Below, in pieces: positions 4,070 through 38,102 of a stretch of 64,000 bases of DNA (positions are counted from its first letter, which is position 1; each line of letters begins with the position of its first letter). Below the pieces are notes generated by a model. The model made no database searches. It saw nothing but the letters and a program-made list of their open reading frames with translations, and was not told the origin of the DNA. The translations under genes and the position numbers were made by a program. Location of the stretch: positions 36,312 to 100,311 of the forward strand of contig MPNW01000622.1 of the NCBI GenBank assembly GCA_011800805.1. Reading direction: 5' to 3'. Source of the DNA: Hirudo medicinalis (taxonomy: Eukaryota > Annelida > Clitellata > Hirudinida > Hirudinidae).

Positions 4070-7000
4070 TTATTTCTTTACATTTCTAAAATTAATTGAA
4101 TCATGATTCACCAACCCCATATGCACTCCAGCAACGGATAAACCAATTAGGAGAAAAATAAACAAGACCAAAAAGATCATTTTTAGTCTACTTGTTTGTG
4201 GACTGTCACCCTCTAAAATATCACAACAAGGCATCAAATGATAGAACTTAAATGAAGCTATAGATTGATAATCTTATATGGGTTTATACAAATATTTCTC
4301 TTCCTCAATAATTCTTCAAACAATAAAATCCATCGAGCGGCAGAATTGAGAGTGTGGACGAGTTCTTTTATTTTTGAATAAAATAAATAATCGTGAATAG
4401 TTTAAATTCAGCATTTTAAAGCGCATCAAGCAGTTTGTTGCACACCAACCTGTGCAAAGAAACCAAGAAGTTTCCCAAAATCCAGGATTGCAAATGCAGT
4501 GGAAGGAGCCATTTATGTTTGAGCAGGAAGATGACCTCTGTGGGCAAAGTTCTATACCACTTTCGCATTCATTGATGTCTGTGCAACAAACACTGTACAT
4601 CAAACATGTCTATCAAGTCATCAGGTCGTGATGAGTGTGCTGATGAGATGTTTCATCATGATAAAGGATGTCAACTGGGGGGGGGGGTCGCCCTTAGCCC
4701 ACTGCCTCTCTCACTCTTGAGTTGGTTCCCTAGCTCCAAAATAAAGGTCAGATAACCAGCCAATTTCAGGGATATTTAGGAAGGGTTGGGTGTCGGTTCA
4801 CCAACGGGAAAAGCCAAAGTGACATCCCTGCTAGTGATTGTCAAAATCATAAATATTCATGTACTCAGAAACATATATATATACAATTTACAAATCAATC
4901 TTCCAATTACTCTAAAAAATGTAAAAAATCTCAAACCTTCGCATGAATTTGTTTTCTTGTTCATCAAATATCCATGCAAACACAGACACTCATAGACTCC
5001 CTTGGAGTCATCGCATATTTTGTCGACCATATATGCACAAGGGTCGAATACCTCGCAGTTCGGCTTTAAGTCTATCATACCTTCAAAATCGATTGGCAGT
5101 AATTGACTATGTCGTTATTTATTTCCAAAGTGAATGAAGTTAATGAGAACGATTAAAATATAACTCTTCCATAACTCTTCTCATCCCCGAAACATTTTCT
5201 GTTAGATTCCAATTTAAAAAATACATGGTTGAAATATTTTCTGATGGCACTTTTCATTGCAAGTAAGCGTGTAGTGAATCGTGGCGGTTTTCATCATCTA
5301 GTTCGGCAAATTTGCAGATGACACAAAAGTCAGCAGTAAGGTTAGCCAGAAAGGTGTGGACAGAAGTAAATTGTATAATTGGTCGTAGGAATGGCAGATG
5401 ATAATTAATGTGATCAAGTGCTCAGTCATGTATGTGTGGGGCAGGAATATGAATTTTGGGAAAGGTGTTAAACTGGAAAGAATAAGAAAGAGATCTGGGA
5501 GTGATTATGCACAAGGGTGTAAGATCAACCGTACAATGTATATAAACTGCTAAGAGAGCAAACAGGATATTAGGTATGATAAAGAGGACGGTGGTCGGTC
5601 AGCAGGGAAGCAAGCATCATATTGAAGTTGTTTAAAGCATTGGCGTATACAAATACGGAACTCCCACTTGAAGAAGGATATTGAAACCTTGGAAAGGTTA
5701 CAGAGAAGAGCAACAAGGACGATTAAGGTCTAGGAAATTCGAGTTACGAGGAGAGATTAAGAAGGTGCAAACTAACAAACCTAGAAATAAGGAGAAGCAG
5801 AGGTGATCTCATAGAAATGCTCAAGATATTAACAGTAAGAGAAGATTTATCACCTGAATATTTCTTTGAGGCCACCAAAAGCAGTTCCACAAGAGGGCAT
5901 GCTTGTAAATTATACAGGAAGGCAACGGGTGCTCTGAAGAGTAATTACTTCGACAGGAGAGTAGTTGTTAATCTGTGGAACAAGCTACTTGATGAGAATA
6001 TATTCAGATTCGTGGAACTATTTAAAACAGTACCTACACTCAGATATTGAAATAAAAAGGAGTGGTTTATCACAAAGACTTTAGTCATCTTAAACCACTG
6101 TAAATTAATGTTAAATAAAGTCAATTTAATTTAAGCTTCAGCTTAATATAAAGCAACTGGCAGAAATTTCCTGTATCCTATAAGTCAATCATTACCTGAG
6201 GTCAAACTTTTTCCCACCAACGAGGAGAGGATTCTCAAAATACCATGCTATGACTTAGACCCCTCAGCAAAGCTGCGAGTTTGTTATGAGAAATTATGTT
6301 AATTTTCAAGCAATGATTATGCTGAAAGGTTTGAAACTGTATTTATGGGACAGGGGAGGAATATGAAAGGAGAAACTGTTTGAAAATGTATTTATGGGAA
6401 AATGAGTTTGAAATGACTTTAATATCGCACGTCAGCTTCAAATATTGCGCGAAAAAGTCATATAAAAGTCATCACTTTCAGAGTTTGAACAATTCTGCAG
6501 AGATCAAAGTAAAGAAGTTAATATTTTGAAATTTAGGGATAATATAGCACCTATAAACAGTGTTGGATAGTTTCGTATGTGTTTTATGTATGTGTGGAAT
6601 TGAAGATTAAATATAGGAAAATAGGGGGTTGATAGCATTCAATTTGCAAAAACCTTTTTTACCCTATATACATATACCATATCACTTGTCGTATCCACGA
6701 GACCTAAGTTATTCAGCGAATAATTACATTCTGTGTTTTCTGTTTTGGAGATCTCATTTGCTAATTTTTCTGCTTCATTTTTTTCATATTTAGCTTAAAT
6801 AGAAGTACAACTCCACATCAGTTAATTGATTAGTTAATATATATATTATATATTAATATTATATATATACTATAAATTATAATTAATTAGTAGTATAATT
6901 AATTAATTAATCTATGCATTATTTCTTTAAACAAAACAAAGGTAAACCATTACTTCCAAAGCAGTATTGGGAGCCTTCAAAAATGGGCCTACTACATCCA

Positions 7001-10000
7001 TGATCACAAATTCCATACATATTCATACTACCGTTGCAATTGAAAAATCTTAAATAGCCTACTTCAAGTAGCAACAACCAGGGAACTTAAAAATAAAAAC
7101 ACACTAAATAATAGGATTTTGGATAAAACATTGAATATTATATTATTGATTTAATTAAAATTTATTCAATAAATATTATTCCATGGTCCTACTAATATGA
7201 ACATAAAGCTGTTGCAATGTTCTTTCGCTACTTGATAACGACTTGCCAGTCATTGACTCAATAGAATATCTATAATTTAAAACAGTTGAAAGTGCATGTG
7301 CACGTTTGACCTAAGAACTTCCAAACGGTGAACGGTAGCGACTTGAAATTTGCAAACATCATTCTCTAGGCCATTCGCAGGTCAACTGTGCCATTTTCAG
7401 TTTTCAACTTTCACCTTTTCCTAAATTGCACATGAGCTTAAAACTCGAAAGCAAGGAGCATCGTGCTCCTGCATGGTCTAATGCTCGAGACCTCACCTCT
7501 CGCGACGGCGGCACGGATTCCCATAACGGGAGCACCGACCTAATCGCCCAGTCCTCCGGGAACGAGTAACTGGCCGAATATGGAGGACGTATATAATAAA
7601 ATTAATTAAAATGATAAAAAATGAGTTTCACTGGCACTTTATAATGGCTAGTCTTTAATACAAAAAAAACAGAAAGTGCTTTTGTATGTCTGTCTGTCCC
7701 AAGAACTCCTCCCAAACACTGAAAGGTAGAGACTTGAAATTTGCACTTGTCATTCTCTATGCTATTTTCAGTTTTCAAGTTTCCCAATGCATGACTTTCG
7801 ATGTTCCAGTATCCCAGAAGTTCCACTGGCATTAGAATATTGGATTAGTACATGATATGCCTCACAGTGCACAAAATCAGTGCTATAACCTTCAACCAAA
7901 ACTTTATCGAAATTTTTCCCAACAATACTGGATTTTTCATAATCTAATTCAACTTTTGAAATTCAGGTGATATATTAATATGCTATTAACTTCGATCTTT
8001 GTCATTTTCCTAACTACAACTGATGAAGTATTCATAAGTATTTTATTTATTTTATTACTTGACGCTATGAAGCCATTATAAAAATTATAAACATCACAAA
8101 GTTTCGATAAAAAGGAACATTTCTTGGCATGCTCCTTAAGAGAAACACGAAAAAAAAAAACAAAAGTTCTTTGTTTAAGAATTAAATTTCAATTTAAGAA
8201 AAATTAATGCAAATAAAAATTAATTTTCCCGATTAAATTTTCAATTTCCGGTCCCGCAGGAAAAATATTTCCGACCTCTAGTTTGAGTCCCATCGGGGGA
8301 GCCATTCGACCGGTTCTCCGGGGGCTAGCGACCGACCGAATTTGAAGGACGTAAATAATAACGGGACGAATAAAATTAATGACGGTGGATAAAACAAGAG
8401 TTTGAATACGTGAAGCTAGTTTAAAAAAGCTAGTAATTACGTACATGCGTAACTGCTGCTGCCGTCTGAACCGCCGCAGATGTGATCGGCATTGCCACTG
8501 CAATTCTTATCGCACATATCATGCTTATCGCCCCACGGTTCTCCGGGAAGGTTGTCAACTTCGACACAACCGCATTGGACACCACCCTGAAAATAAAAAC
8601 GACATCTATATATAAATTTTCGTGATGATGTAAACGGTGCTACATGCTTCAGGAAGATATTGATATTTTAATATGCAAATGTAAATGTACTTCATTTATA
8701 AAGCATATAGAGGCACTTCTTGTTAACCAGTATTAAGTACTAAGAAACTCCTACTGGACAGGGAATCATCGGAGGAGTGCGCCCGTCACGAACGGTTTCG
8801 GCCCAAACTAACTTAACTTCTTGTTAACCATTTATATAGCGCTCCTTCCCAAGGGCACTTGCAGCAGTGCGGGACGGGTTCTGAACGCGACCGTTGCCAT
8901 TACCGGCACGTGCAGGAACACATCCCATATGCCAACCAGCTGCAACTTGTTTGCATCATCGCTTAAGATCTCATTCTTCGTTGTTGGTACTTGATTTTTA
9001 CAATTGGTTCTATCAGCAATTATTCATTTAACAAGGGGCTGGTATTATTATTATAACCTGCTAATTCCATGCTTACTTAATCCTGTAATCATCTCGCCCG
9101 GGCAATCCGACATATCCGTCTGCTCCTCTCCTCTGCCAATAGAACTTATGCCCTCGCATGTGGCCTAGTTCTCTCTTGCTTTCTCTACTGCAACTCCTTT
9201 CTCTACAATACATCTCCTCTTTGATCAATGGATCAATTCCCTTGCAAGAGGTACAGAATAAACAGAGCTAAACCTGTTCTCCTCAACCCCCATGCTCAAT
9301 AGCTCTGACTGATTGAAGAATTGCACTGGTCGCCCATCCATAATCACACAATATTAATTAGACCACATGCACTAGACTTTTCTAGTTTCCGGCAGCAGTC
9401 GGCTCGGTCGAACGACCTGTGCACGGACGATAATCGACTCTTTGATATATAGAACTCAGATTTTTATTAGATGATATACATAACTGATAATTATGTTATA
9501 AAATAATTGGTTTTATTTACATTTAACGTTATTAAAAAATGTTGAGCAGTCGTTCGACCATGCAAATGTAAGTAATGTAAGCATTTATTAAACATAACTA
9601 AGTATAATTAATCAAAATTGATTTAAAAAAGGCTTTTGATACTGTAAATCATCACATATTATTACATAAACAAAGAAAATTATGGTATCATTAAATTTAC
9701 ACCAAAATGATTAAATTATTGTTGTTTGCTGATGTATGTATACGATACTATGTATATTTCTGGAAAAGATGTCAATAACCTTATTTGTGCTGTAAATAAT
9801 GAATTAGTTATTATTAATAATTGGTTTATTTCAAATTGCTTAACTCTCAACTTAAATAAATCAAGCTTTATTATTTTCCATTCTTCAAAAAAAAATCTGT
9901 ATCATTTCACTCTCCTCTTTCTATTAACAATAGTCTTCTAAACAGGGTTAATTAAATTCGGTATCTTGATGGCATTTTGATGTATGAACATTTAACTTGG

Positions 10001-13000
10001 TCAAAACATATGACTCATATTCAAAATTTAATTGCTAAAAACATTGGTATTATTTCAAGAATTTGCCCATTCATTAATACTAAAACAGCTCTCCTATTGT
10101 ATTTTGCTTATATTTAAACCTATCTAACTTATTGTAACATTGTTACAATACATTGTTACATCTTAACACTGGGCTTCTACTTATCTTTCTCATTTAGATA
10201 GGTTAAATGTTTTACAAAAACGTATTATTCGGATTGTTTTCTTGTTGCCATTTTTATCTTCAACTAAGTCAACATTTGTAAATAATAATCTGCTAAGCAT
10301 TTATCAAATCCACTGTTTACAAGTCGCACTTTTTATGTTTTGTTGTGATTACAATGCCCTTCCTAAGATATTTACAGGTTTTTTTCCAGATAGTAATAGT
10401 TACAACAACCCTACCCACTTCCTTCGTACTACATATGAATATAGTCCCTTATTTGCTAAGTCTACCTTCAAACTCTTTTCCATTCAATGCTATGGTCCAA
10501 GATTATATTCTACAATTCCATTATCAATAAAAGATCAATCTTTATCCTGCCCTTTCAACGTTCTTTATTTGTTATTTAAAAAAGCTTATAAGTTGTACAT
10601 ATTGCGTGGTTTTCTTTGAGTAGTTTTTTTTCTATTTTGTTTAATTTTGTACATACTTGTATACTTTTGTGTCTACTTGTAACGTGTTAGTGAGGGTCAG
10701 TCTGATAGCAGAAGCGTGCATTTCCTTAAGGCTGACCCTTGAGTTATTTTATTTGTTTTTTTTTCTGTTGGTTTACTGTTACACTTGGATAATAAATAAA
10801 ATTGCTCAAAAAAAAATACAGATTTGATGTTTCACCTCCAATATCACTGCAACAGATTCTTTATAATTCATGCAATACTCAATGCAGGATTGGGGCATCA
10901 CATTTTCTTTCAGACCGGGGAGGTCCCAACGAGCTGGATTATAACATCCGTTATAAAAAGGAAGGCTGATTCTCACTAAAAAAAAAATCCTATTTTTTGA
11001 TTCAAGTTGAACGAGTACAAAATTGTAGTAAAAGGAACCAAAAATGCTTTTTTCAATTATTTAGTTATGTTAAGAAATTTTAAATGGGAAGAAGCTGAAA
11101 AACCGAGGGCCGATTCTGTTAGGGGTCATCCATTAATTATGTCAACAAATTTAAGGCAATTTTTTACCCCCTTCTCCCTCCCTTGTCAACAACTGTCAAA
11201 CTTCTAGAGATCCGAGTGGACCCCTTAGCAAAATTACCTAAAAAACACTGCCCCCCATAAAATATATTTTGTTTTACAATTTTTAATTTGTGATTTATAA
11301 CACTTTGGAATTTGTGACTATTATATTTTGAAAATAAATAAGATAATTGTTAAACTGAACATTATTGTCATTTTTTTTATTGTCAGCTTCTATCATCTTC
11401 CCATGGAAGAATCAAAAGTTCTTCTATTGTAATAGTAGGCGCAGTATCGGATTCATCCTTTCCATCATTTTGTTGAACTGATAAACCAGACAAATCAACA
11501 TCATTTTCATCTTGGTTCAGCACATAAAGTAGCAGAATTTTCTTTATGTTCAATGATTGCCATCAGCTCTTTCTGACATTTTGCAGCCGCTCGAATTGGC
11601 TGAAGGTTTTTATTGATAATCAGATATTAATTTGTGATGCCCATGATGATCGCATTGCTCGTCGACGTTGCAGTGTTTCATTAACATGATTTGTGAACGG
11701 GGCTGCCGACAGAAATTTCTGGCTCCCGGGCAGTGCCTAGTAGGCACAGCGGTCATGGGCGGCAACTTAGTAAGGGAAACACAAAAAAGTCACGATTGTA
11801 AAATTTCAATATTTTGCAAATCAAGCAGTGACAACTGAACTAAAGGACCAACAGTAATGTTATAAATCCATGTTAAAACTCAGATTTTTTTCATCATAAC
11901 ACTGTTGATGTCAATTAATCTTAAACCCCCCCCCCCCCTTGTCAAGAATTGTCAAATTTTTTCAAAACACCTCCCTCCCCTGTTTTGTTGACATAATTTA
12001 TGGACAGCCGTTAGAGGATACCAGGCCAACCTGCAGGAGGAGCCTGGGCAATCCACTCAAAATATAAGTTTAACATCAATATCCTAGTAATGTAAATTTG
12101 CATTAAATTTATTTTATTAAGCATTATTGGCATATCCTAAATGGATATTCTACAATCTACCAGGATTGGTATGATAGGATGAAAAAGATGCCAAGATAAG
12201 GAATTCCTAACAAAACTAATAAATTTCTACAAACCATATTTTTAATTTCAAAGAAAGGAAGGAAGGAGAGGAATTTCAGCGAAGGAAGATAAAAGAATGA
12301 AGATCCAAAGAAGTGTAGAAGTGTTGATTGTAAATCATGATCTTACCAAAGAGGACAGAGAACACTGTAAAGATCTGCTCTAAAAAGCTAAAGCAGAAAA
12401 GTCAAAAATAGTTGAATTGGACAAATTTGTAAACAACGTGAGAGGTGAGCCAAGGTCTTGGTTAGGAGAAGGCATCTCTAAATTTGAAATAGTTAAATAA
12501 AGAAATAGAAAACAGATTAGTGAAAGTTAAGAAATTGGATAACAGAAATAGTCACAACCGATACAAAGGAACTTTCAAGAAATCAGTCCCAACAAGATCT
12601 GTTCATCACTCAATCCGATGTCCTTCAGTTATGCAACGTTGAGACAGAAAACAGGATGCAAAAACTGCATGGAGTCATTAACAGACATTTGCCTTTCCGA
12701 AATTTTGACTAAACAATATTTAAAATTAAAGTTCAGAACTTCTAAGCTTACCGTAACAATTCTTTGATGTTCAAATAAATGTTACTAACCTAGATAAACT
12801 GAATAGTATTTCACACCGCCACAATATTTATTTCCACATATAATGTTACAATGCTCCGGTTCTAACGGGTAATTTTTGTCCGGATGACCGCACTCACAAT
12901 CTGATTCCTTGCAGAAAACATATCGACAAATAAACGTATAGTTTTTAATAATAGTGCTGAAGGTAATTCGTTATTAATGTGTAAGTAATAATTTGGATAC

Positions 13001-14986
13001 AATATCTATTCAAAAATCGATAAGCGTAGAAACTCAACAAATTATGCATATTTTAAAAGGTAAGTATGTTATCTTTATTGTTCAAAAACTACTGGACTGA
13101 CTTTCAAATTTTGATTTTACGTTGATATTCGCGATAAAATTTAATTATAACATATTGAAATATACATATCACATACCTCTATTTTCTAGAACTCATCCAA
13201 GGCATTAAACTATGGTTTTTTAATTGTTCAATTAAAGCAGATTTCAAATTCGTAAAATACGGCATGAGATAATAAAAACAATGGATCTAATTAAACAATT
13301 CAGCTAACTTGTTCAATTATTATATGCAGTAGGGGTTATGGACTCAAATGTACCTATACTCTGAGCACTAGACTAATATGTAGACTAGAGATACTAGCTA
13401 CTAGATACTAGAGTCACAAAACTCATCTTACATTTATGATAGCTGCAAATTGAAAATTTTCACATTTGTGCAGACATGACTGCCAGTCTGTAAAGGGATG
13501 TGAAGCTTTATCTACGAAATCGTCGAAACATCCGTAATAAAACGATGTCAATTCTCCTGGGCCTCCAGCTGTTGAAATTATTGAATTATTGAATTTAGTA
13601 GCAGTAGTTACAGAAATTCTTGGGAGCGGCTTGGATTTGAATTCCCAACGGAGCCGCACCAAAGCGAAAGCTTCTCAACTACCCAATCGGCTACCGGATG
13701 CTCAGATCAACTCCATCCGTTCAAGTGCCTCGCCAAGACATTTATTTATTATTTGCATTAAAAAATGTACATAAATGCTTTTTTATTACGATTATATGCT
13801 GGATAGGATTGATTATATGGATTGAGCATTTCCGTATGTACGTTGTGGTGAGGGGTGGTATGGAATGTTACATTTGTCCTTATTTCCAACCTTCATGGCA
13901 CTAGATACTAATTATAAACTTTGTAAAACATATTTAAAAAGTTAATCAACTATCATTACAATATAATCTCTATATGTTCGAATTTTTCAAAATAAATTTA
14001 CGTTATGATAAGGATTTTACATATGACTTAATGCATTTTGGATCAATAGATATAAATAGGCCCAATAAGCAAGTCAAGAAATTTCGTCCTATTCATCAAG
14101 TTATGCTGAGGACATTAAGAAAATACAACTGCTACAATTAAGCAATTAACCTAGCGTGAATACTTCAATTTCGGCAATGGAAAACCCCACATCTTTCGAG
14201 GATAGAATTCTCACGCGCTTGGCTAATCTGCTCAGACAATTAACTCTCATCTCTTTACCTTCTCCGAGGCTAGCCTTCGGAAACATTGAACAAAGTTCAG
14301 ATTCTTCTGTATCGTTGTATAGTTCGACCGTAAATCCGTCTAGACACCCATCTGCAAAAATTATTGCAATCGGAGACATTGCTTATGTCACACCAAACTC
14401 ACTCAAAAGAATAATGCCAAATTGTATGTTAAATATTTAAAATGAAACTTTGTAATGGAATATTAAATTGTCAACATCATCATTTATTATGACCAATTAT
14501 TTATTAATCATTATTTATTATAATCAATCAATGAAATTCAATTTTGTTTTCACCTAATTGTTCTATCGATCTCCCTTCTGTGACAATAACATAATGTACG
14601 TAATACTGTTCCTCCAATTGAACGTCAATGAATGCTCGAGGAGAACAAGTTATATTTAAAAATATTGGCGTTTGAATATTTTTGACTCCATCAGTAAGGA
14701 AAGCGACATCAATACTCATTTTACAATATGCAACCGGCTTGCGGAGGGCAACATTCATCTCTGCAATTCCTGAAATTTATTTTGAAGGAAAGGTATTCTT
14801 AAAAAGTTGTGCTCAATTTCGAGTCGCGGCATTGACTGATTTCATGCTGCCAATATCAACGGTTGTGTGCTCAGCCTCAGATCAACAATCAAAACAAGTT
14901 TCAAACAAATATTTAAGTTTTCGTGTTTTTTATAAGTTCTAATTCCGCTAACCTTTTGGAAACAAGATCAGCAAGATGGCCAACAT
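4070..14986 (-). CDS. gene A: F-type lectin / WSC / EGF type I membrane protein
   Basis: Eleven exons (minus): 14986-14953 signal peptide MLAILLILFPKG; 14769-14554 and 14351-14151 F-type lectin-like domain (NVALRKP..., LDGFTVELYND, then IAEIEVFT at the end); 13568-13432 plus 12907-12790 first WSC domain; 10975-10836 plus 8586-8445 second WSC domain, each with eight cysteines; 7085-6954 EGF/laminin-type module; 5080-4937 EGF; 4578-4450 calcium-binding EGF (DINEC, and CxNx4FxCxC hydroxylation motif); 4212-4070 transmembrane helix (MIFLVLFIFLLIGLSVAGV), stop 14 residues past MGL. The sum is 1536 nt, 511 residues, in frame throughout with phases 1-1-1-0-1-0-1-1-1-1. F-type lectins bind fucose and WSC domains are putative carbohydrate-binding modules. 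The fucose motif (HX24RXDX4R/K) is not visible, so the ligand is open. Weak points are the AAG acceptor at 12908 and the duplicated exon 1. Confidence 0.8.
5290..6120 (+). mobile_element. 5'-truncated CR1/jockey-like LINE, reverse transcriptase C-terminal part
   Basis: Degenerate plus-strand reading with FADDTK (RT catalytic motif) at about 5308, then LEWQM-like thumb sequence. It continues through HLKKDIETLERLQRRATRTI and TSLEIRRSRGDLIEMLKIL, then YFDRRVVVNLWNKLLDENI near the end. Several stops and frameshifts make it inactive. The 3' tail (AAAAAGGAGTGGTTTATCAC..TAAACCACTG) is shared with copies at 1.66-1.87 and 27.7 kb. It lies in antisense orientation inside gene A's intron between the EGF exons 6954 and 5080. 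Confidence 0.8.
7443..7600. repeat. SINE-like dispersed repeat, copy 1
   Basis: A GC-richer island ending in ..ccgaatatggaggacgtatataataaaattaatta. The order of blocks (gattcccataacgggagc, cctccggg, actggccgaat, ggaggacgta, then an AT tail) recurs at 8270-8375. That suggests a short retroelement with an AT-rich tail. No protein frame is convincing. Both copies sit in gene A introns. Confidence 0.35.
8240..8375. repeat. SINE-like dispersed repeat, copy 2
   Basis: Same block order as at 7443-7600: tttgagtcccatcggggga, ctccgggg, gaccgaatttgaaggacgta and ataataacgggacg. It ends about 70 bases from the second half of WSC domain 2 of gene A (exon 8586-8445). Confidence 0.35.
9600..10818 (+). mobile_element. 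LINE fragment with RT and C-terminal segments plus poly-A tail
   Basis: The plus strand reads LFADxxDTMYISGKDVNN..., NWFISNCLTLNLNKSSFIIF, then a tWSKHM..IQNLIAKNIGIISR segment, and a 125-residue open frame (10242-10619) rich in aromatic residues typical of the C-terminus of L2/CR1-like ORF2 proteins. Frame breaks at several points make it inactive. The 3' end is AATAAATAAAATTGCTC followed by a run of A at about 10809-10817. The element is 5'-truncated and ends about 18 bp from a splice donor of gene A. Confidence 0.75.
11117..12013. mobile_element. DNA element with inverted ends (tccattaattatgtcaacaaa)
   Basis: The left end reads gttaggggtcatccattaat-tatgtcaacaaa. The right end is its approximate inverse (tgttttgttgacataattta-tggacagccgttag), with a second inverted internal segment (ttgtcaacaactgtcaaa / ttgtcaagaattgtcaaa). 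About 0.9 kb lies between, with no intact transposase. It sits in the gene A intron between the WSC1 and WSC2 exons. Confidence 0.5.
13610..13735 (-). repeat. tRNA-related SINE (Ser/Leu-like arms)
   Basis: On the minus strand, TAGCCGATTGGGTAGTTGAG resembles a tRNA A-box region and GGGAATTCAAATCC resembles a B box with flanking GCCGCTCCC acceptor-like pairing. The long variable region recalls tRNA-Ser/Leu, but mismatches and the missing 5' acceptor arm point to a SINE or tRNA relic rather than a functional tRNA. It lies about 40 bp upstream of the WSC1 exon of gene A. Confidence 0.4.
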
Positions 14987-15072
14987 TTTTCTGAAATGAC
15001 GTCATGCAAATACTACGCAACTATCAATTAAGAATTATTTTCGTGAAAACAGTGTTGGTATGTAACGTCAAT
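14948..15072 (-). repeat. 125-bp exon-1/5'-flank block, copy 1 (gene A)
   Basis: Contains the exon-1 donor (CCAAAAG|GTTAGC), the signal-peptide frame MLAILLILFPK, the start codon at 14986 and a CRE plus octamer just upstream. The same 125 bases recur at 15075-15199, 16445-16569 and 32980-33104. This copy ends directly at a 2-base gap (15073-15074). Confidence 0.85.
14997..15011 (-). promoter_or_regulatory. composite octamer/CRE motif upstream of gene A start
   Basis: On the minus strand ATTTGCAT (POU octamer) is joined to TGACGTCA (perfect CRE/ATF palindrome), sharing one base, 11 bp before the ATG. The arrangement is identical in the other copies of the block. It could be a promoter element close to the transcription start, or lie in a 5' UTR or intron (a TTTCAG acceptor-like site follows). 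Confidence 0.45.
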
Positions 15073-15074
15073 NN

Positions 15075-15199
15075 CTAACCTTTTGGAAACAAGATCAGCA
15101 AGATGGCCAACATTTTTCTGAAATGACGTCATGCAAATACTACGCAACTATCAATTAAGAATTATTTTCGTGAAAACAGTGTTGGTATGTAACGTCAAT
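15075..15199 (-). repeat. 125-bp exon-1 block, copy 2 (after gap)
   Basis: Same as copy 1, with CDS-like 15113-15080. It begins immediately after nn and continues into upstream sequence (catgacttatcactacccc). Most simply it is the same locus as copy 1, with the contig overlap left unmerged by the assembler. Confidence 0.8.
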
Positions 15200-15483
15200 C
15201 ATGACTTATCACTACCCCTAATAAGTTCGTCATTTTTTTTAATTTTAATTATCGAATTGCATTTAATATCAATTGGTAAATTATTAAAATCGGAAACATT
15301 TTTAAGGCCAAATAATTTTTTTAAAATAATATTTTGTATGAAATTATAATGTGAAATATAAATGTTGAAACAATACAGAGAACCATTTGCGTGTTTGGAA
15401 TAAAATTCAGTCGGAATATTGGCTCAAAAAACCACGGGAGATCCAAGAAAGTCATGAGTCTTCTGATACTTAGAGCACCTTAT

Positions 15484-16444: not shown

Positions 16445-16569
16445 CTAACCTTTTGGAAACAAGATCAGCAAGATGGCCAACATTTTTCTGAAATGACGTC
16501 ATGCAAATACTACGCAACTATCAATTAAGAATTATTTTCGTGAAAACAGTGTTGGTATGTAACGTCAAT
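16445..16569 (-). repeat. 125-bp exon-1 block, copy 3 (after gap)
   Basis: Third copy, with CDS-like 16483-16450. It is followed by upstream flank nearly identical to that of copy 2 for about 80 bp (caatcacgacttatcacta versus caatcatgacttatcacta) and then divergent. No downstream receptor exons belong to it here, so it is either a misplaced promoter of another paralogue or a remnant. Confidence 0.75.
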
Positions 16570-16952
16570 CACGACTTATCACTACCCCTAATAAGTTCGT
16601 CATTTTTTTAAATTTTAATTATCGAATTGCATTTAACACCATCGGACAATTAATTGTTCGACAGAAAATAGAGAATGCACAAAAACCATTGGAGTCATTT
16701 CCAGGGCCAAATAAATAGCCAATTAACATGTTTTAAATAATATTTTTCATGTAATTGTGGCATGTAATCTAAATATACAGAAAACCATTTATATTTTTGA
16801 AATAAAAATCAGTCAGAAATTTATCAACTGGAATATAGGACAAAAAAAACAAAAACACTGGAAACCCACGAAACTAAAGGCGGTAGTTCATAGGAGGAGA
16901 TTTTTCACTTCTAGAAACTCTCGTCTAATATAAACAGGCAGTATCTGTCTAC

Positions 16953-27800: not shown

Positions 27801-30800
27801 TGTATTGTGTCAAAAAAATTTATTTATAATCTATATAAGCATTTCAATCTAATTACCAAACGCTCCTTTGATCTTCATCGGGTAATTTTTAATAAGATTT
27901 TATTTTGTAATTGTTTAAATTGTCAAAATTTAAAAATGGCTGATAATGGAAGACTTCGTAATATTAATCGAGCATTGAAATAATCCGCTTTTCTTTTTTA
28001 CCTGCAATGCCGCTACAAATGCATTTATAGTTGCTCGAATGCAGTGATTCAAGCAGTATGGAACTGATGTGTCTCCTCTAAGTTCGTTTTCTCTAACACC
28101 ACCAGTAATGCATCCAATATAGTATGGAAGATCGACTCTCACTGAAAAGAAATTCCTATGATTAATTAAAGACAAACAAAGAATACGAAAATGCTTTTTC
28201 ATGTCTTCATATTCGAGTTGAGTTATGACAAGTGAGTTGTACAACGTAACAAGTGCATTCCCGGAAATATATTTTAAGTTTTTATAATTTCCAACATTTG
28301 GTTGGCTTGTATGATTTACATTTTTTTAAATGTGCCTTGAAAGTTTCAAGTCTGAATCCAAAATCTCTCCTGATAAACCGTGTCCAGAGATCACATGAAT
28401 TTGGTAACTGGTGCCCTTTGATAGAGTGCCATCTCCCAAATCTCAGCAAGCAGTTTATCCTCTTTTCCGTCTTTCGAATCATTCTGACGTACTGTTGATG
28501 TCGCCGTGTAATTCATTCATTCAAATGATCTTTTGTGATAGAAACTCTACGAGCGGCTAGAATCTGAACTCCTAACAGAACGAAAGCTAACGACAACTCG
28601 ACTAACGACGTCATGTAAATGAGAATCGGTAGATGAAATAGTCCCTCTTTCTACTGCGTTGCACTTATTGGTAACATTCCGAACCGGATTTAGCGCTGAA
28701 ATGCGATGTCCTATGGTCGACTTCTATAGAAGGATACCAGGCCAACTCGCAGAATGAGGCTGGGCAATCCGGGGGCTCACTCCTTTGTCCGAAATAGGTT
28801 TAATTTCAATACCTTCCTCTGGATTTGGCTACTAAACTTTGATAGCTAGCCAAACTTTCAGATTGCAATTCTATTAGTTCTAGAAATATCAACGTTTTAT
28901 AAGTGATAAGTGAAATAAATGACTGGAACGACCGAGTGATTTGTTTGTAAAATTTGTTTATTTCCGTCAGTTTTAAACCGCAGAATTTTAAAAAGGTTTT
29001 CGTAGGATCTTAAATATGCTAGATAAACAATGCAAATATTTTGGGTGGGTTTCAGCAATATGAACGAAATTTTTGTTTAGCGAGAAGACTGCGCACGCAT
29101 ACTTTATTTTTTATAACACGGCAATGTTAAGCATATCAAGCCTTTTTCTTCTTTTTTCTTTAACGTATTTCTTCGTAGAGATCACGTACTACCGAATTAT
29201 TTGATATTATTGTTCATTAACGTTCTCATGCAACGTGGCTTGGATCTTTTCCAGATAAGCCCCGCCAAAAAGTTAACCCCCGCCACCCAAAAAAGATGAT
29301 AAAAAAGAGGACACGAAACTTGTACTTTTAGTTTTTATCGAAGAGGGTGAAATTGGGACATGTCATTAATTTCTTGCCGACACTGTCGGGCATTACACCT
29401 CCTGTCAGAAACAGTTGAAAGTGTCATTTGGTGGCCATTGTTGCATAAACGTTGATGATGGATCACTCCGTGGCTTTGCAAAAAACGTATTGCCGTCTCC
29501 TTGTCATGAACGAGAGTCGAAAGCGTTAGAAAGTTCATTTCAGGTTTTACGTCCGAACTTAGAAAATGTTTGCACAAAATGAGCCTAGAGGCGGATGAGT
29601 TGTTTTTATGGCGCGCGTTTAAATATTAAAAAAGTGGCGGGTCTTAACTTTTCGCGCGTGCGCTTTTTGCATTAGTGGCGGGGCTTATCTGGAAAAGATC
29701 CCGTGGCTTTACGTTTCTCGCAAATGTCTTTAGTAGACCCAAAATGTTACCTTTCCGAAATTTGGACTATATATTTATTTTAATGTAAGTTTAGAACTAT
29801 AAAACATATCGTGATAATTCTCTGCTAGAATAATAAATGTTAGTAACCTAGATAAACTGAAAAGTGATCGTATCCACCACAAAGTTGATTTCCACATATG
29901 ATGTTACAATGCTCTGGTTCTATCGGTATGGCATTGTTTAGCGTGTAACCGCATTCACAAAATGATCCCTTACAGAAAACATGAATAAATAAAAGTATTA
30001 AATGACCATTATTAATATTTAAGTAATTATTTTATTATCCATTCAAAAGCAATACATCTACAGTCGTCAATTTATTATCATTTTTGTTATGTTCTTATCG
30101 AAGTAAAACGTAGAAAATAAGTCGAACCAAGCAGAGCTAAAACAAAACGAGTCCCACACTTTATTGTAAACCAAGCCTCCGGACCTGCCGTCCGGAAGAC
30201 CATGAATCGTGATTATAATATAATTTTGCAATATATTTATAAATATACATTACTTATTAATCGTGGCACAACAATTTTTATTCCCGACCAAAACAAATTA
30301 CCCTTCTTCGCTTTCACCTTTCCAGATTTTCCAGATTTACCTCTCCAGATCTTTCAGGTGCCCTGTAGTGTTTCAATTGCAATGTTCATCATTCTCAACT
30401 TCGACTAATCTCTTTCAGAAATTGTTCATTTCTTGCGCCACAATCCCTCCATTCTAGTTGCATGTCTAACTTACTAGAGCTAGAGCTTTTTCAAATGTTT
30501 GTGCATCCATCATCATTGTGCATCAGTTTTTTGGCAAGTTTTAATGATGTGCTCCGGAGAATTGATAGCCATCATCAAAATTTGCGAAGTCTTTTTGATT
30601 CCTTTCCGACACCCTCAACTTGAGGTAGTGGTTTGGAAGATGTCTCGTGAGCATTTCTCACTGCATTTCTGTCCGAGGATATCAAGGTAAAATAAATATA
30701 ACTTCGGATGTGAGCAGAAAGACTTTTGCCATTCAAGATTCTCCGAGGTTTTTCTAATGCCATCTTGTCCTCTCAAAGTCAGAATGCGATCTCGACGTTC

Positions 30801-33018
30801 CACATTGATTGGATCTTGCATTTCTTAAACACATGTCGCTCGTCTTGTAATAATTATGTCATTTTGCTCTACAAGCAATGTTTCGTGAGCATCTCAGCCT
30901 TTCAAAAAAGTCATTGGAATTTAACATCCAACGAAGATGCAGTGTGTGGTTCTCTTCTTACTGCGATCGCTGAGGACGTTCAAATCAAAAATTGAGGAAA
31001 TCTTTGCAATGAAGGAAGCACTCTCGACTTACATTTCTTCAAAAATTAGGATACTGGGAAGAGATAGTAAATTAATAAGATAAACAATTAATATACACAT
31101 TTTTCCATCTGTTCTCATACCGAAGGGTATTACTCGGCACAACGGAATAATCTCGAATCCAATTTGTGCTCGATTGGCTAATCAATTTATTGCCAATCGC
31201 AAGAACTTGTTCAAGCATCATACGAAATGGGAACTATGGACTCAAATGTACCAGACAGTTCAATACGAGTTATTCTCATACAACATTACTTACATTCAAG
31301 ATAGCTGCAAATTGATATGTACGACAATCGAGCAGACATGACTTCCAGTTTGTAAATCGAGGTGAAAATAATGTTTTGAAGTAGCCTAAACATCCATAAT
31401 AAAAAGATGGCACTTCTCCCGGGCCTCCAGCTACAGACGAATGTTGGAATAAAATTAAATCAAATAACATCATAATTTTGATATAATTAAAGCGTCTCCC
31501 CAGGATATATTACTTATAATAATAAATTTTTATAAACGCTCCAAACATTTAACATCCCCACATCATGGCTCGAGATTGGGGGATAATTATTATTATTATT
31601 AATTATAATAATTGTTATTTATATTAATATAATATTACATCATTATTATTATTAATTATAATGTAAGCCATTGGCTGCTATGCCGTTATTATTATAATTA
31701 ATAATTATTATTATAATATTATAATTATAATATATTAATTATATAAATATATTAATTATAATTAATAATAACTATACGGTAATTAATAATAATATTTTTA
31801 TTATAATTATTATTATTGTATAATAATATAATTATATATTATACAATTATATAATAATATAATATATAATATAATTATATAATAATATAATTAATAATTA
31901 ATATAATTATTAATATATAATAACTATTTTTATATCAGTATTATTGCTGTTATTACTATTATTAATAGTAATAAAAACAATTATGATAATATTAATAATA
32001 ACAATGATAATAATAATTAATATTACGTACATTCTAATTTTTCGAAAGAATTTTATATTATGAAAAAGATTTTACGTACAATTTAATCCTTTTGTACATT
32101 GCATCATCAAAGTCAAATAGTTTAAAAATGTTTTATAAATTGACAATTATAAAATTATAATCCAACATTTAAGCACGTTAAGTATTTAACCTAGCGTGAA
32201 TACTTCAATTTCGGCGACGGAAAGGCCAACATTTGTCCGTGATAGGATTCTCACACGATTTGCAAAGTTGGACCTACAATTCACCCTCATATCGTTACCT
32301 GGTCCTGCGCTTGCCCAGGTATGCATTGAACAAATTTCACGAATTCCTGTCTCGTTGTACAGTTCAACCAAAAACATGTCTAGTGCAGCTTCTACAAAGA
32401 TTACTCCAATGGGAGGTTACGTCACAATGAAATGTATAATTCTTACAAAAGGGTAATGCTATTCAAAGATAAATTTATCCAAATACCGAGTCGTCATCCT
32501 CATCATTCAACGATGTCAATGAAAATCAACAAATTACTTTTTACCTAATCCTTCTGCTGCCTCTCCTTCGGTCACAACAACGTAATTCACATAATACAAT
32601 TCCTCCAAGAGAACTTCAATGTAAGCCACTGGATCACACTTTGCTTTAAAAATTGCTGATTTTTCAACGCTTTTGTCCTCATCAGTGAGGAGATCCGATG
32701 ATAGATTCGAAATACTACAGTATGTGGCTGGCTTGTGGGCGGCAATATTCACCTCAGCAATTCCTGAAATTGATTTTGAAGGAAAGGCTTTCTTAAAACA
32801 TTTTACTCGATTTTCGAGTCGCGGCATTGACTGATTTCACGCTGCCAATATCAACGGTGATGTGCTCGTCCTCAGATCAACAACCAAAACAAGTTTTAAA
32901 TAAATTTTTAAGTTTTCGTGTTTTTATAAAAAAAAATAATAAAAATAATAGAAATAATTTTTTATAAGTTCTAATTGCGCTAACCTTTTGGAAACAAGAT
33001 CAGCAAGATGGCCAACAT
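21882..33018 (-). CDS. gene B: F-type lectin / WSC / EGF type I membrane protein
   Basis: Eleven exons (minus): 33018-32985 signal peptide MLAILLILFPKG (identical to A); 32763-32545 and 32391-32191 F-type lectin-like domain (NIAAHKPATYC..., FLVELYNETG, VAEIEVFTLA); 31430-31294 plus 29968-29848 WSC1; 28141-28002 plus 25536-25407 WSC2, eight cysteines each; 24645-24520 EGF/laminin-like; 23751-23608 EGF; 22367-22236 calcium-type EGF (DIDEC); 22021-21882 transmembrane helix (AILISFLIFLLIAFTVVAL) and short tail. The sum is 1524 nt, 507 residues, in frame. Intron positions and phases equal those of A, and intron segments are also shared (e.g. aggataccaggccaac near 12.01 and 28.73 kb), so A and B are recent duplicates. 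Introns hold a LINE, a Merlin-like element and a TIR element. The promoter is cut by the gap at 33105. Confidence 0.8.
23050..23470 (-). pseudogene. LINE ORF fragment
   Basis: A minus-strand frame reads LFFIEVGARGVVGRSTFLTK and then RTKAAEAASFWIWQIR, a pattern seen near the C-terminus of several LINE ORF2 proteins (EVGCRG...ST...L..LG... AAE..S.W.W). There is no catalytic core here. The GC content is higher than the surroundings. It sits in the gene B intron between the last two EGF exons. Confidence 0.45.
24030..24253. repeat. palindromic MITE-like element
   Basis: The left arm, ggtctctaattaaagtgatt followed by acatttataatctaaa, is inverted at the right as tttagattataaatgtaatc followed by actttaatcagagatct. 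Further internal repeats of attataaatt are present. No coding capacity. Confidence 0.6.
24689..25202. mobile_element. non-autonomous TIR element with TA target duplication
   Basis: Starts CCGTATTTTCAC and ends GTGAAAATACGG (perfect 12-bp inverted repeat), flanked on both sides by TA (24687-24688, 25203-25204). The interior is AT-rich with no transposase. A TA duplication is typical of Tc1/mariner/pogo-type elements, so this is probably a MITE. It lies 43 bp upstream of an EGF exon of gene B. Confidence 0.75.
25540..27800 (+). mobile_element. CR1-like LINE with endonuclease end, RT and 3' tail (degenerate)
   Basis: The plus strand reads SFLDFINDKF, VNDVRIGEHFHKSDQGIIRF (end of the endonuclease), then KSPGIDELHQKFLKE, ALVIPLFKKDSSRYPGNY, ILSKVMEDILRDKIVEHV, SQHGFV, VGLIYLDFTKAFSKVPHERL, the VPQGSVLSPPLFIIYMNDLD motif (frame-shifted), FAYDKK in place of F-ADD, and a C-terminal LKNLQRRATKMI. 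The tail (AAGGAGTGATTATTGATAGTC...TTAACCACT) ends near 27775. Multiple stops. It is inserted antisense in the WSC2 intron of gene B, almost touching exon 25536-25407. Confidence 0.85.
29242..29701. mobile_element. Merlin-like DNA transposon, deleted copy
   Basis: Perfect 26-bp inverted ends begin GGATCTTTTCCAGATAAGCC and are flanked by a perfect 8-bp duplication CGTGGCTT (29234-29241 and 29702-29709). The only frame (minus, 29577-29335) reads FLQSHGVIHHQRLCNNGHQM and then DRRCNARQCRQE, resembling the N-terminal zinc-binding region of Merlin/ISXO2-type transposases. The DDE core is deleted. Merlin elements make 8-9 bp duplications, which fits. It sits in the gene B intron between WSC1 and WSC2. 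Confidence 0.75.
31570..32030. repeat. AT-rich low-complexity tract
   Basis: Almost pure TTA/TAA/ATA sequence without coding potential, in the gene B intron between lectin exon 3 and WSC1. Confidence 0.85.
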
Positions 33019-33104
33019 TTTTCTGAAATGACGTCATGCAAATACTACGCAACTATCAATTAAGAATTATTTTCGTGAAAACAGTGTTGGTATGTAACGT
33101 CAAT
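32980..33104 (-). repeat. 125-bp exon-1/5'-flank block, copy 4 (gene B)
   Basis: Same block as at 14948-15072, including exon 1 (33018-32985) and the octamer/CRE composite. It terminates at exactly the same base as copy 1, against a run of N. Confidence 0.85.
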
Positions 33105-33166
33105 NNNNNNNNNNNNNNNNNNNNNNNNNNNNNNNNNNNNNNNNNNNNNNNNNNNNNNNNNNNNNN
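33105..33166. other. assembly gap (62 N)
   Basis: Run of N between the gene B exon-1 block and a (TTA)n tract. The gene B promoter is therefore missing here. Confidence 0.99.
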
Positions 33167-33208
33167 TATTATTATTATTACTGATTATTATTATTATTAT
33201 TATTACTG

Positions 33209-33262
<54 letters not shown>

Positions 33263-33306
33263 GTTATTATTATTATTATTATTACTACTATTATTATTAT
33301 TATTAA
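33167..33306. repeat. (TTA)n microsatellite
   Basis: About 140 bp of TTA/ATT units with single interruptions (actgatt), resembling the tract at 16284-16443 that also abuts a gap. Confidence 0.9.
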
Positions 33307-33388
33307 TAATCATCATTTTCAGAAATTAAATCTAAGAACCACATCCCCTTTCTCTTACTTGTTGCTTATTTTGTTAAAGCTCCTACAG

Positions 33389-36300
33389 TTAAGCAATGTC
33401 GACTGAACGAATCCACACTAACCACGAGTACAGAGGCAAAATGAGCAACAAAAGGAAGAGAAATGATGCGAAGGCAATTGCTGTCATTTTGGCTATCTCC
33501 TTCATTTCTTCATACGAGTAGGTTTCATCTGGATGGTTAAGGGGCTGTATTAACTCAATTCACATTAATTCCAGTTGGTACCTGGAGAAGTCACGGGCAA
33601 AAGCCAATTCGCGGGGAACAAATTTCATGGTTTCCCAGGGTTAGGGCAGGGATTTACAAGTCCCCTCAAAATTTTGAGGACCCCTTCCATAACTGCACTC
33701 CCTGGGTATGTACACTTCTAAGCAACCAGGTTAGCCCAATTTGGTCATGAAAGAAAAGGCTAAAAAGGTCATCAAATGACGTCAATGGTTCAGTCAGTAT
33801 CGAGTTAGGGAGAATGTGCAAATACATACAAATGTACTTCTTGGTAAACAGTCCCCAATTAAAAATTTTCTACACAAATCCCTGGATTAGGGGTACGGAC
33901 GGGTACAAAAGGTTGTCGCAATGATACAGTTTAAATTTGCAAATATAAAAAGACAATTTTTTGTTTAATCACGAGTGAAGAAAAATAGTCATCAGTAAAT
34001 CAAATTAATCTGAAAATGCATTGGCATCGACAAGATAGACAGCTGAAAAGAGACAATTACTTCCTGAGCAAGTGAAGTTGTCTAAATTCGTGTGGCCAGG
34101 GTAGCATTCGCAGTAGTAGGCTCCGTTCAGATTGAGGCAGGTGGACGTGTCTTTGTCACAGGCTTGAGGTTTTGCTTCACATTCGTTTATATCTGTACGA
34201 ACACAAAAACACAAAAACTTCACGCTTACAGCATCGTTCATAGCACAGCTGGTTAATTGGTTAACACAACCGATCGATTAAGTAAAATAAAATTAACTGA
34301 AAAGAAGTAACCAATTAATTTCTAATTAATAATTAGCGAACTAAACGAACATCAGACCTTCACATAGCGTTGTCTCAATTTGCATATACCCCTGCAGGCA
34401 TTCACACTTGTAAGAATGACCGAAGTCTATACATTCGGTGTTAGGCAGATCCTTGCATGGATGAAGATTTTTGCAAACAGAAGCGTCAGCAGGTATCTCT
34501 TCCGCTCCTAAATGTGAAGTCATTTAAAAATCTACAGTCGATACAAAAAGTAATCCGTGAAGTAATCCGTGCGTGACGGAGACATTGAGGTCGGTGACAT
34601 GCTTATGGCCACGTTTAAACGATGATGGGCTTCTGAGAATGCTAGGGAACACACATCTCCGATTCAAACATCATGTAACAATAACTTAAATAATAATAAT
34701 AATAATAACATAAATAATAATAGATAATAATAATAAATAACAATAATAATAATAATAATAACAGCAATAATAATAATATTAATAATAAAATCAGAAATAT
34801 TACAATGAAACGCCTAACCGGTTGTTTTGCCTCGAGCTTTGGGTGGAGTTCTTTCTGAAAAATAGGAAATTTTTCTTCATAAGGAAAGAACATCTGTGGA
34901 TCGAGTGCTTCCAGTGAAAGTGGAAACGTATTTTAATCAAAAGAATGTTGTTACTTGTAAAATTAACTATCAACATGTTAACATAAGTACGTTCTTCGGA
35001 TAATGTCAATGAAATGATAACATGTCAATACTTCTAAGATATTTGAAAGACCCATTAACCAAAAACAGGATTGTAAAAGCTTAAGCCGTTGAAATATTTA
35101 AAATAAATTGGCTAAAATTTCAAAATGCAACAGTTACCTAAACCTCATCTTATTACTAAGTAGGCTGAATAAATAAACTGAATATCAAGGTGATTTTTAA
35201 AATTACCAAAGCAGTATTTCCCAAAATATCCAGGCTTGCATTCGTTGCAGACTCCAAATTCATCGCTCCCTCCATCGCATTGATAAATGCTTAATGTATT
35301 TGACTGGTATAGGCCCTCAAGCACTGAAAAATACAGATGTGCTTGTAATTGATATTCAAAATGTACCAGGTAAGCATCCATCCAGCTTTTCAAGTTTTTT
35401 CAAAACTTTTCAAAACAGCTTTTCAAAAGAATATTATAATATTATTGAAACGATATTATGATATTATTGAAACTATGTTATGATACTATTACTAAAATAG
35501 GTCTAAGATAGGACAACCGTAATAAGGCGTAAAAACACTCACATCCATAAACAGAGGTATATTCAGAACCACCACAAATTTGACTTGGGTCACTTTTGCA
35601 CTCTTTGTCGCATAATTTCCAGTTAGATGTGCTAATTGTCGCTTGTTCAAATACGCAAGTGCACGTATCCCCTTTCTTCGTAATTATATTTACTCAATTT
35701 ACAAAAATGCAACATTCTCAACAATAAGAAGTCAAATTACTCAAAGCATGTCTAAAAACCTGCCAGCTCAAATTTCTGTTCAATAACGAATCTAAGGAAT
35801 GAAACTTCATTTTGGAGAACTTATTCGACCGTAAACCTATGAGTGTTATAGGCGTAAGAGCGTTATATACGTGCAATTATTCTATCACGTCGGGACAACT
35901 TTTTATTTATTATTACATTATTTATTTTCACAATTACAATAATTGTTTGTCATTGTTTAACTCCATTCAAATTTAAGAAGCAAAAAAATTGTCTACCAAT
36001 ACTGCATGGTTAAATCCATGACAAAAGTTGATACACATGGTAACATTCACACCTTCACGAACACTTTTCGTGTCAACGTAAACACCTTCAGGAAAACAGC
36101 CGGTGTAATATGGAAGCTGTACGTTCACTGAAATGTGTCACAAGGAGTGGTCATGAAAAGAATTTAGCTGAGCTAAATAAATTCAGTTTATTTTATTAAT
36201 TGTTTGACTAACGTTCGTTTTACTATTCGTTGTAATTATAACCATTAAATTATAGAATAACGATCAGAAAAAGAATTATCAGTATAGAATGGCAAGAAAG

Positions 36301-38102
36301 TGGATCTGCCGTGATCTTGAGGGAGTCTGCTCTTCTAGGAGTCTTGGAACATTTAGTAGAGGAATAAATAGTTCATTAAGTAATTAACTTTGCAGAATGA
36401 ATTGTAGGCTCATACTTTCTATTAAAGAGATTTAGTTCTGCTAACCCACATATACTGGAATAGCTCCATCGACTCCACAGAACTTTCCCCAGCATTCATT
36501 ATTGCAATTTTCCTCTGGCAACTGCAAGCTATGCAGATAAATTTTCCCACATTGGCATCGATTATCAATCTTTTTGAAAAACAAACAAACAAATAAAGCA
36601 ATACAAAAACATGCTACAATCATCCTTTAAAAATACAATTCAATGTCGAGGAATATTCGACAAAGATGAGCACTACTTCACTACAAAAACATTACACGTC
36701 ATGGCAACGCTTCCAAAAATAACCAACAAATTAAAGATATCATACTGCACGGCATAATAATTATATTCCGCATAATAATTAAACTGTGGCCGACACTTAT
36801 TGTAGGTCACTTTATCAAATCTTGATTGGTTTTGTTCCTCTTAATGTTGAAATAGGTAAATTAATGAAAGCGAATATTTGAGAATTTATGACCATGTGAT
36901 TGCATAATTAGCGGCTGATCATGCAAACCAATAAAAAAAATAAATTTAATAACTGCAAGTGTTGAAAAGCAAAAATAACCTCTCACCATCATAGTAGCAA
37001 GGAGAAAATTCAGTTTGTGACAATACGTCATACATGATATCCAATCGTTTGATTGGTTTTCGACATCCTTGTGAAATTGGTCGAAGCATCCATAATAAGA
37101 CTTTATGAACTCGTCAGCATCGCCTGAGGCTGTTGACATTTTTGAAAATTGAACCGCGTGATTCCAATTAGCACAAGTACGACATAATGTAATGTTTTGT
37201 TTTCATACAAGTAGAACACAACAATTTAAAAAAAAAATACATTACGAGAGCAATTTTCATGGAAAGGTAACATTCACCCAGATTTTCCTCTTCGCATACA
37301 TCAAAAATTATTAAAAATACTCCAGTCAACAGAACAAAAATAAAGAACCTAGAGTGTAAACTTCAATTTCGGCGATGGAGAAACCAACGTTTTTCCTAGA
37401 TATTATTTTCATTCGACTGGCTTGCTGGGAAAGACAGTTTACCCTCATGCCCCGACCTGGTCCAAGGCTCTTTGTTGGAAACAAGGAACACAGTAAATAT
37501 GTCTTCCGTGATTCATCATACAATTCAACCACGAAATTATCTAATGCTCCTTCTAAAAAAAAAGTAGTAAAAATAGCTTACTACATTTACTTGTACTACA
37601 ATGCGTGCCCTTGAGAATGAGCGCTATATAAATGGTTAGCTGGACATCCCGAAGTAGGATCAATGGCTGTCTACTCAAATGCAAATCATCATCATTTGTA
37701 GCGAAAATTCTTGTTTCTGTGAAGGGGGACAAGTGATATGGGCCAAAAAAGGTTGACATAAAGATAGAAAGTCTCAAAGGAATAAGACAAAACGGTTTTT
37801 TTATTAGATTTCAAAAGTTTACAATCAGATTTTGTTTTACCTAGTTTGTCGATATGCATTCCTTCGATGACGATGACGTAATGTACGTAATACATTGCAT
37901 GTAAATTGACTTCAATATTTGATGCATTTGTGTCATGACACCCATGCAAGACGACGTGGGACAAATTGATCCATTTCTTAGCATCGGTGATGTGATTGTC
38001 GAGTATCACAACACCGCAATAAAAAGAAGTTTTACCCAAAGCAATGTTGTGTTCAGATGCTCCTGAATTTGTAGAAAATAAAGTCAGAGTACAAAATCTC
38101 AT
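33389..38102 (-). CDS. gene C: compact F-type lectin / WSC / EGF type I membrane protein
   Basis: Ten exons (minus): 38102-37841 start plus first lectin-like half (NIALGKTSFYC...); 37552-37349 second half (LDNFVVELYDES, IAEIEVYTLA); 37129-36987 plus 36569-36446 WSC1; 36127-35997 plus 35675-35543 WSC2, eight cysteines each; 35323-35207 EGF/laminin-like (CDGGSDEFGVCNECKPGYFG); 34507-34358 EGF; 34192-34061 calcium-type EGF (DINEC); 33528-33389 transmembrane helix (AFASFLFLLLLILPLYSWL) and tail. The sum is 1536 nt, 511 residues, in frame, with the same phases as A and B. The start is uncertain: the in-frame ATG at 38102 gives only a weak signal peptide (MRFCTLTLFSTNS), and the conserved acceptor (ACAAATTCAG|GAGC at 38063) suggests an unseen separate exon 1. 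Introns are short and mostly free of transposons, so C is the best template for the family. Confidence 0.8.
33575..33630. repeat. fragment of the 40.3-kb palindromic element
   Basis: Sequence ggtacctggagaagtcacgg then gcaaaagccaattcgcgg closely matches the left arm of the element at 40286-40482 (ggttggagaagtgactggca, aaagccaactcacaggc). It lies between gene C's last exon and its calcium-type EGF exon. Confidence 0.5.
34680..34795. repeat. (AAT)n microsatellite
   Basis: Imperfect aataataat/aataataac array downstream of the gene C WSC-to-EGF exons. No coding value. Confidence 0.85.

What the first reader, a model, noticed from the sequence alone, without database searches (positions are those of the whole stretch)
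4070..38102. Tandem family of F-type lectin + double WSC + triple EGF transmembrane proteins
Seen: three genes on one strand, each with a signal peptide, F-type lectin fold signature, two eight-cysteine WSC domains, three EGF modules, one TM helix and a tail of only about 10-25 residues. All three exon chains sum to whole codons and keep identical phases. Known: F-type lectins and WSC domains are glycan-recognition modules. Inference: this is a cell-surface recognition receptor family. I know of no described protein with this exact order, and the short tail suggests it signals through partners or acts in adhesion.
Basis: partly seen in the sequence, partly recalled or inferred. Interest (0 to 1): 0.78.

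Follow-up and report, generated by a model that had tools for sequence, protein, structure and literature searches.

The report
Large lectin-headed animal receptor family
Three neighbouring animal genes encode cell-surface proteins with a lectin-shaped head on a cysteine-rich stalk, and they belong to a family of several dozen genes in this genome that looks built to recognise many different surfaces but has lost the usual sugar-binding residues.

Summary
Three minus-strand genes (A 38712-33389, B 33018-21882, C 14986-4070) share one exon plan with identical phases: leader, F-type-lectin (FTL)-fold domain, two 8-cysteine WSC domains, three EGF-like modules, one hydrophobic helix, 8-13 residue tail.

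Beyond the window this is one corner of a large family: 62 paired FTL loci (these three included, some broken) on 24 contigs of the same 133-Mb genome, up to 83 candidates on 35. The order recurs, 7-9 exons recovered, in 7 of 8 paralogue stretches; no TM exon was found in those by that search. Two disjoint family profiles (17 and 34 sequences) match only F-type lectins in the PDB. The fucose motif is not found in register in 53 domains; the cation-site DG remains in 49. dN/dS of the five closest pairs is 0.38-0.59. Best reading: a lineage-specific family of surface-recognition or adhesion receptors acting through partners. Function, ligand and species are unproven.

The parts
38676..38712 (-). 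gene A probable leader exon (MLMVVLLILFKK|), phase 1
   Evidence: hydrophobic ATG exon with phase-1 GT donor, like the B/C leader; inferred
37349..38062 (-). gene A FTL-fold domain, exons 38062-37841 and 37552-37349
   Evidence: family profile
36446..37129 (-). gene A WSC1, exons 37129-36987 and 36569-36446
   Evidence: 8 Cys; Pfam WSC with two stretches
35543..36127 (-). gene A WSC2, exons 36127-35997 and 35675-35543
   Evidence: Pfam WSC best stretch 251-323; 8 Cys
34061..35323 (-). gene A EGF1 (35323-35207, 4 Cys), EGF2 (34507-34358), EGF3 (34192-34061, EGF_CA)
33389..33528 (-). gene A transmembrane exon and 8-residue tail, stop
   Evidence: helix judged by eye
32985..33018 (-). gene B leader exon MLAILLILFPK|; lies in a contig-end block beside an N run
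32191..32763 (-). gene B FTL-fold domain, exons 32763-32545 and 32391-32191
29848..31430 (-). gene B WSC1, exons 31430-31294 and 29968-29848
   Evidence: 8 Cys; no Pfam hit at E<=1
25407..28141 (-). gene B WSC2, exons 28141-28002 and 25536-25407
   Evidence: 8 Cys; no Pfam hit at E<=1
22236..24645 (-). gene B EGF1 (24645-24520, 4 Cys), EGF2 (23751-23608), EGF3 (22367-22236)
   Evidence: (EGF_CA 1.2e-9)
21882..22021 (-). gene B transmembrane exon and 13-residue tail, stop
   Evidence: helix judged by eye
14953..14986 (-). gene C leader exon MLAILLILFPK|; further copies at 15113 and 16483 are probably assembly overlaps
14151..14769 (-). gene C FTL-fold domain, exons 14769-14554 and 14351-14151
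12790..13568 (-). gene C WSC1, exons 13568-13432 and 12907-12790
8445..10975 (-). gene C WSC2, exons 10975-10836 and 8586-8445
   Evidence: Pfam WSC best stretch 243-321
4450..7085 (-). gene C EGF1 (7085-6954, 4 Cys), EGF2 (5080-4937), EGF3 (4578-4450)
4070..4212 (-). gene C transmembrane exon and 12-residue tail, stop
   Evidence: helix judged by eye

Best explanation
A, B and C are a tandem trio of a large, lineage-specific family of single-pass surface proteins. An FTL-fold head with a conserved framework and highly variable segments sits on a WSC-WSC-EGF-EGF-EGF stalk; in A, B and C it is anchored by one helix with almost no cytoplasmic tail (shown by sequence). The head no longer carries the canonical fucose triad, so it most likely binds diverse other glycans or protein ligands on microbes, gametes or other cells; because the tail is too short to signal, it acts through partner proteins or by adhesion (inferred). 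Copies arise and die by local tandem duplication (shown in part).
For: Same exon plan and phases in A, B and C. With A, B and C as the only seeds, 7-9 of 10 exons in the same order in 7 of 8 ten-kb paralogue stretches, on 6 other contigs. 62 paired FTL loci on 24 contigs, often clustered: C211 9, C766 9, C400 6. FTL fold: two disjoint profiles hit only F-type lectins among 177,635 PDB sequences at E<=10, best 5.2e-4 and 6.2e-5. WSC: PDB 7pz2 at 5e-10, Kremen 2.1e-7. Fucose motif not in register; DG in 49 of 53. Nine-residue windows average 2.8-3.4 bits where most variable and 1.25-1.9 where least. dN/dS 0.38-0.59 in the five pairs with dS below 1. The window copies form one clade, support 0.992.
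Against: No transcript, protein, ligand or expression data. dN/dS is below 1, so positive selection is not shown; variable segments can also come from relaxed constraint, and their placing in loops is inferred without a structure. The exon search imposes exon types, phases and splice rules, and it found a TM exon in none of the 8 paralogue stretches; one came out at L008 with a modest score of 39, others are only candidate hydrophobic frames. The eighth stretch, L047, gave 4 exons. Pfam lectin-type hits are weak (PF22633 and PF00754: 2 of 17 each at E<=1; 10 and 5 of 34 at E<=0.1).
Confidence: 0.6

Rival explanations
1. Adhesion or extracellular-matrix glycoproteins rather than recognition receptors: the WSC-EGF stalk anchors cells to a glycan matrix, and head diversity reflects tissue-specific matrix partners.
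For: Short tails in A, B and C; WSC and EGF modules confirmed; a WSC-WSC-EGF group without a detected FTL head exists.
Against: Some 62 head loci with highly variable segments are more than structural adhesion would seem to need (inference); no localisation data.
Confidence: 0.25
2. A specific form of the best reading: gamete-recognition or allorecognition receptors, in which the head varies between individuals and sets compatibility. Its odds lie inside those of the best explanation.
For: FTLs are named as gamete-recognition molecules (bindins) in molluscs (PMC5712786, passages); many diverged clustered copies.
Against: No polymorphism or expression data; only one assembly was available.
Confidence: 0.12
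3. Mostly relics: a decaying repeat-like family with few functional members.
For: One copy at C400:8367 has a cut-short FTL2 and WSC1b to EGF2 were not found; of 40 FTL stretches 3 gave no pair and 3 a partial one.
Against: 34 of 40 FTL stretches gave complete open exon pairs; closest pairs show dN/dS 0.38-0.59; cysteines and phases are kept.
Confidence: 0.05

Closest known systems
F-type lectins: PDB 4gwi/3le0 (Sm-hPAF; that this is the lectinolysin lectin domain is recalled), fucolectin-related 2j1r/2j22
   Same: Profile similarity over the whole domain; DG cation-site motif in 49 of 53
   Different: Fucose motif HX24RXDX4(R/K) not in register; two further near-invariant cysteines absent from the aligned 4gwi sequence; membrane-anchored on a WSC-EGF stalk
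Drosophila Furrowed and CG9095 (PMC5712786, passages; exact domain content of Furrowed partly recalled)
   Same: Mosaic proteins with an FTL-type domain; [quoted passage not shown]
   Different: Co-occurring domains named there are C-type lectin, CCP, pentraxin, TM and FA58C; WSC does not occur in that text
Five oyster FTL isoforms lacking the basic triad (PMC5712786, passages)
   Same: FTL domains without the triad within one species
   Different: The FTL-WSC-WSC-EGF-TM order is not described in the passages read
WSC proteins: PDB 7pz2 (that it is a fungal Wsc1 is recalled) and Kremen-1 (5fww)
   Same: WSC match by profile
   Different: Different partner domains and order (recalled)

Membership tests
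F-type lectin | F-type jellyroll fold | tested here: met
   By sequence profile only: two disjoint alignments hit only F-type lectins in the PDB; no structure was predicted
F-type lectin | fucose motif HX24RXDX4(R/K) | tested here: not met
   0 of 17 by pattern; 2 of 53 hits to a looser pattern, both with the Arg past the aligned site; second Arg aligns to Q in the profile, first to an insertion. Filed as FTL-fold, not as a canonical F-type lectin
F-type lectin | cation motif (small hydrophobic, x, D, G, N/D/S) | tested here: inconclusive
   DG in 49 of 53, DG[NDS] in 36 of 53; in the window C keeps DG (followed by V), A and B do not
F-type lectin | fucose binding | not testable with these tools
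   needs a binding assay
WSC domain | 8 cysteines and profile match | tested here: met
   8+8 Cys in A, B and C; A and C pass the Pfam cut-off, B has no hit at E<=1; 8 of 9 family members match at E<=0.1; PDB matches
EGF / EGF_CA | 6-cysteine EGF profile | tested here: met
   EGF2 and EGF3: 6 Cys, EGF_CA or cEGF; EGF1 has 4 Cys and no Pfam best stretch lies in it
Single-pass signalling receptor | cytoplasmic signalling domain | tested here: not met
   Tails of 8, 13 and 12 residues in A, B and C (by eye); not settled for the paralogues

The most novel reading that the evidence does not exclude
This animal lineage independently built a germline repertoire of about 60-80 membrane-bound recognition receptors, in which the FTL fold was stripped of fucose binding and reused as a variable-loop binding scaffold, comparable in role to the SRCR, FREP or VLR repertoires of other animals (those comparisons recalled).
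Probability: 0.3. Interest if true: 0.8.

Novelty: new variant of a known kind. Interest (0 to 1): 0.62.

Why it matters
It would add a recognition-receptor class with an architecture not found in the searches made here, and a natural set of more than 50 diverged FTL-fold domains in which loss of fucose binding and gain of new specificities can be tested directly.

Tried and rejected
Full-length protein searches with gene C and a nine-member profile gave one hit each, EGF-containing proteins covering 16% and 20% of the query (P0001, P0002). The tool only considers proteins of 0.55-1.75 times the query length that share exact 5-residue words, so exon-sized fragments or very diverged relatives could be missed. 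Species: not established. For the Jun gene beside the cluster (best 120 of 200 hits listed) one unnamed ENA protein is 99% identical over 76% (P0003); the hits named with a species are molluscs, a brachiopod and a tardigrade at 47-54% over about a fifth of the query, and one clam at 34%. Leader copies as exon duplication: rejected as assembly overlap. Haplotig duplication as the cause of the copy number: rejected for the 53 complete domains, whose closest pair has pS 0.41; partial copies were not in that test. More copies just left of the window: none in C622:26312-36311 (L048). Literature searches for FTL with WSC, fucolectin with WSC, FTL with allorecognition, WSC with EGF and expansion, and related terms listed no title describing this architecture; I saw listings, and passages of PMC8878817 and PMC5712786; only openly licensed PMC papers are held.

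Full report
Gene models. On the minus strand three genes were rebuilt exon by exon. Each has a short hydrophobic leader and ten further exons: two for an FTL-type domain, two for each of two WSC domains, one for each of three EGF-like modules, and one for a hydrophobic helix with an 8, 13 or 12 residue tail (by eye). Entering phases are 1,1,1,0,1,0,1,1,1,1 in all three. I picked boundaries under the GT-AG rule, so their AG/GT ends are not independent evidence; the shared phases and open reading are.

Domains. Pfam passes WSC in A and C and EGF_CA in A, B and C; B has no WSC hit at E<=1, and none of the three matches a lectin or discoidin model. Cysteine counts are 8 and 8 for the WSC domains, 4, 6 and 6 for the EGF modules, in each gene. 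The FTL assignment rests on the family: a 17-member profile matched three of 177,635 PDB sequences at E<=10, all F-type lectins (best 5.2e-4); a disjoint 34-member profile matched four, again all F-type lectins (best 6.2e-5). Individually, PF22633 and PF00754 are each reached by 2 of 17 members at E<=1, and by 10 and 5 of 34 at E<=0.1. The nine-member full-length profile also matches 7pz2 (5e-10), Kremen-1 (2.1e-7) and the F-type lectin 3le0 (1.6e-3).

Family. The Pfam WSC model alone has 54 matches in this genome (133,021,003 bases, 1,557 contigs) and none in 14 control genomes. Protein queries found FTL exons on many contigs. I copied the 117 rows, with some query ranges trimmed for sorting, and 28 further places: 77 first and 68 second exons make 62 pairs on 24 contigs and, with unpaired ones, 83 candidate loci on 35 contigs. 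The three window genes are among the 62. Thresholds were loose (E<=1 or <=10), so some places may be chance; the tool calls its counts lower bounds. With A, B and C as only seeds, seven of eight ten-kb paralogue stretches carry 7-9 of the ten exons in order, and the eighth (L047) four; none gave a TM exon. Of 40 further FTL stretches, 34 gave a complete pair, three a partial one (dropped) and three none, so at least six of the 62 pairs are incomplete or could not be modelled. A second group on C706 and C560 (at least 8 first-WSC matches on C560) has the WSC-EGF part; in four upstream stretches of 2.0-2.6 kb no FTL match better than E 0.6 was seen.

Evolution. Among 53 aligned heads four cysteines are near invariant and DG remains in 49. 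The fucose motif, as defined in PMC5712786 (passages read), is not matched by 51 of 53 even in a loose form, and the two matches have their Arg past the aligned site. In the profile alignment to 4gwi the first Arg falls in an insertion and the second against Q. Nine-residue windows range from 1.25 to 3.4 bits of entropy; the conserved ones match lectin strands by alignment only. Five pairs have dS below 1 (0.60-0.98) with dN/dS 0.38-0.59; the next nine listed, with dS 1.10-1.26, have 0.28-0.72 (simple counting, 58 residues from each end of the domain). This is constraint, hence probably real coding genes, not proof of positive selection. No pair of the 53 is closer than pS 0.41, so they are not haplotigs; one closer copy on C400 (64 of 67 residues alike in FTL1) is broken. 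A, B and C form a clade (0.992).

Search for relatives. Two searches of 5.8 billion proteins gave one EGF-containing hit each. With the limits of that tool, no full-length relative was found; that does not show that none exists.

Mechanism. Shown: surface-protein anatomy for A, B and C, a conserved framework with variable segments, copy number, constraint. Inferred: that heads recognise varied ligands, and that output goes through partners or adhesion. I put about 0.6 on recognition (within it 0.12 on gamete or allorecognition as the specific role), 0.25 on structural adhesion and 0.05 on relics.

Caveats. The assembly shows 125-127 bp repeats at gaps, so B's leader could be chimeric.

Noticed in passing
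window 14946-15201, 16445-16571, 32978-33104: Four identical 125-127 bp blocks, each abutting an N run on one side: probable contig-end overlaps left in the scaffold by a k~127 assembly. A DNA search of the genome found the block only at these four places.
   Followed up: yes
window 60781-61104 and 61560-62498: Jun gene (Pfam Jun and bZIP) with an unusual basic region (KCQMKK; the usual form recalled); one unnamed ENA protein is 99% identical over 76%.
   Followed up: partly
window 17160-18391: ORFs between genes B and C that look like a hAT-type transposase (recalled likeness; no Pfam hit at E<=0.01).
   Followed up: partly
window 10167-10619 and 25768-27248: LINE-like reverse-transcriptase fragments inside introns of genes C and B (recalled likeness).
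   Followed up: no
L006, L094-L097 (contigs C706, C560): A WSC-WSC-EGF subfamily with no FTL exon detected in 2.0-2.6 kb upstream of WSC1 in four stretches; at least 8 copies on C560.
   Followed up: partly
L093 (C400:1-9500), 8367-6712: A degenerate copy: FTL2 cut short, WSC1b to EGF2 not found, next to a better preserved copy whose first FTL exon is alike in 64 of 67 residues.
   Followed up: partly
window 54020-56113: A 697-residue open frame with no Pfam match at E<=0.01.
   Followed up: no
window 127-369, 676-918: Ankyrin-repeat ORFs flank the cluster on the left, same strand.
   Followed up: no
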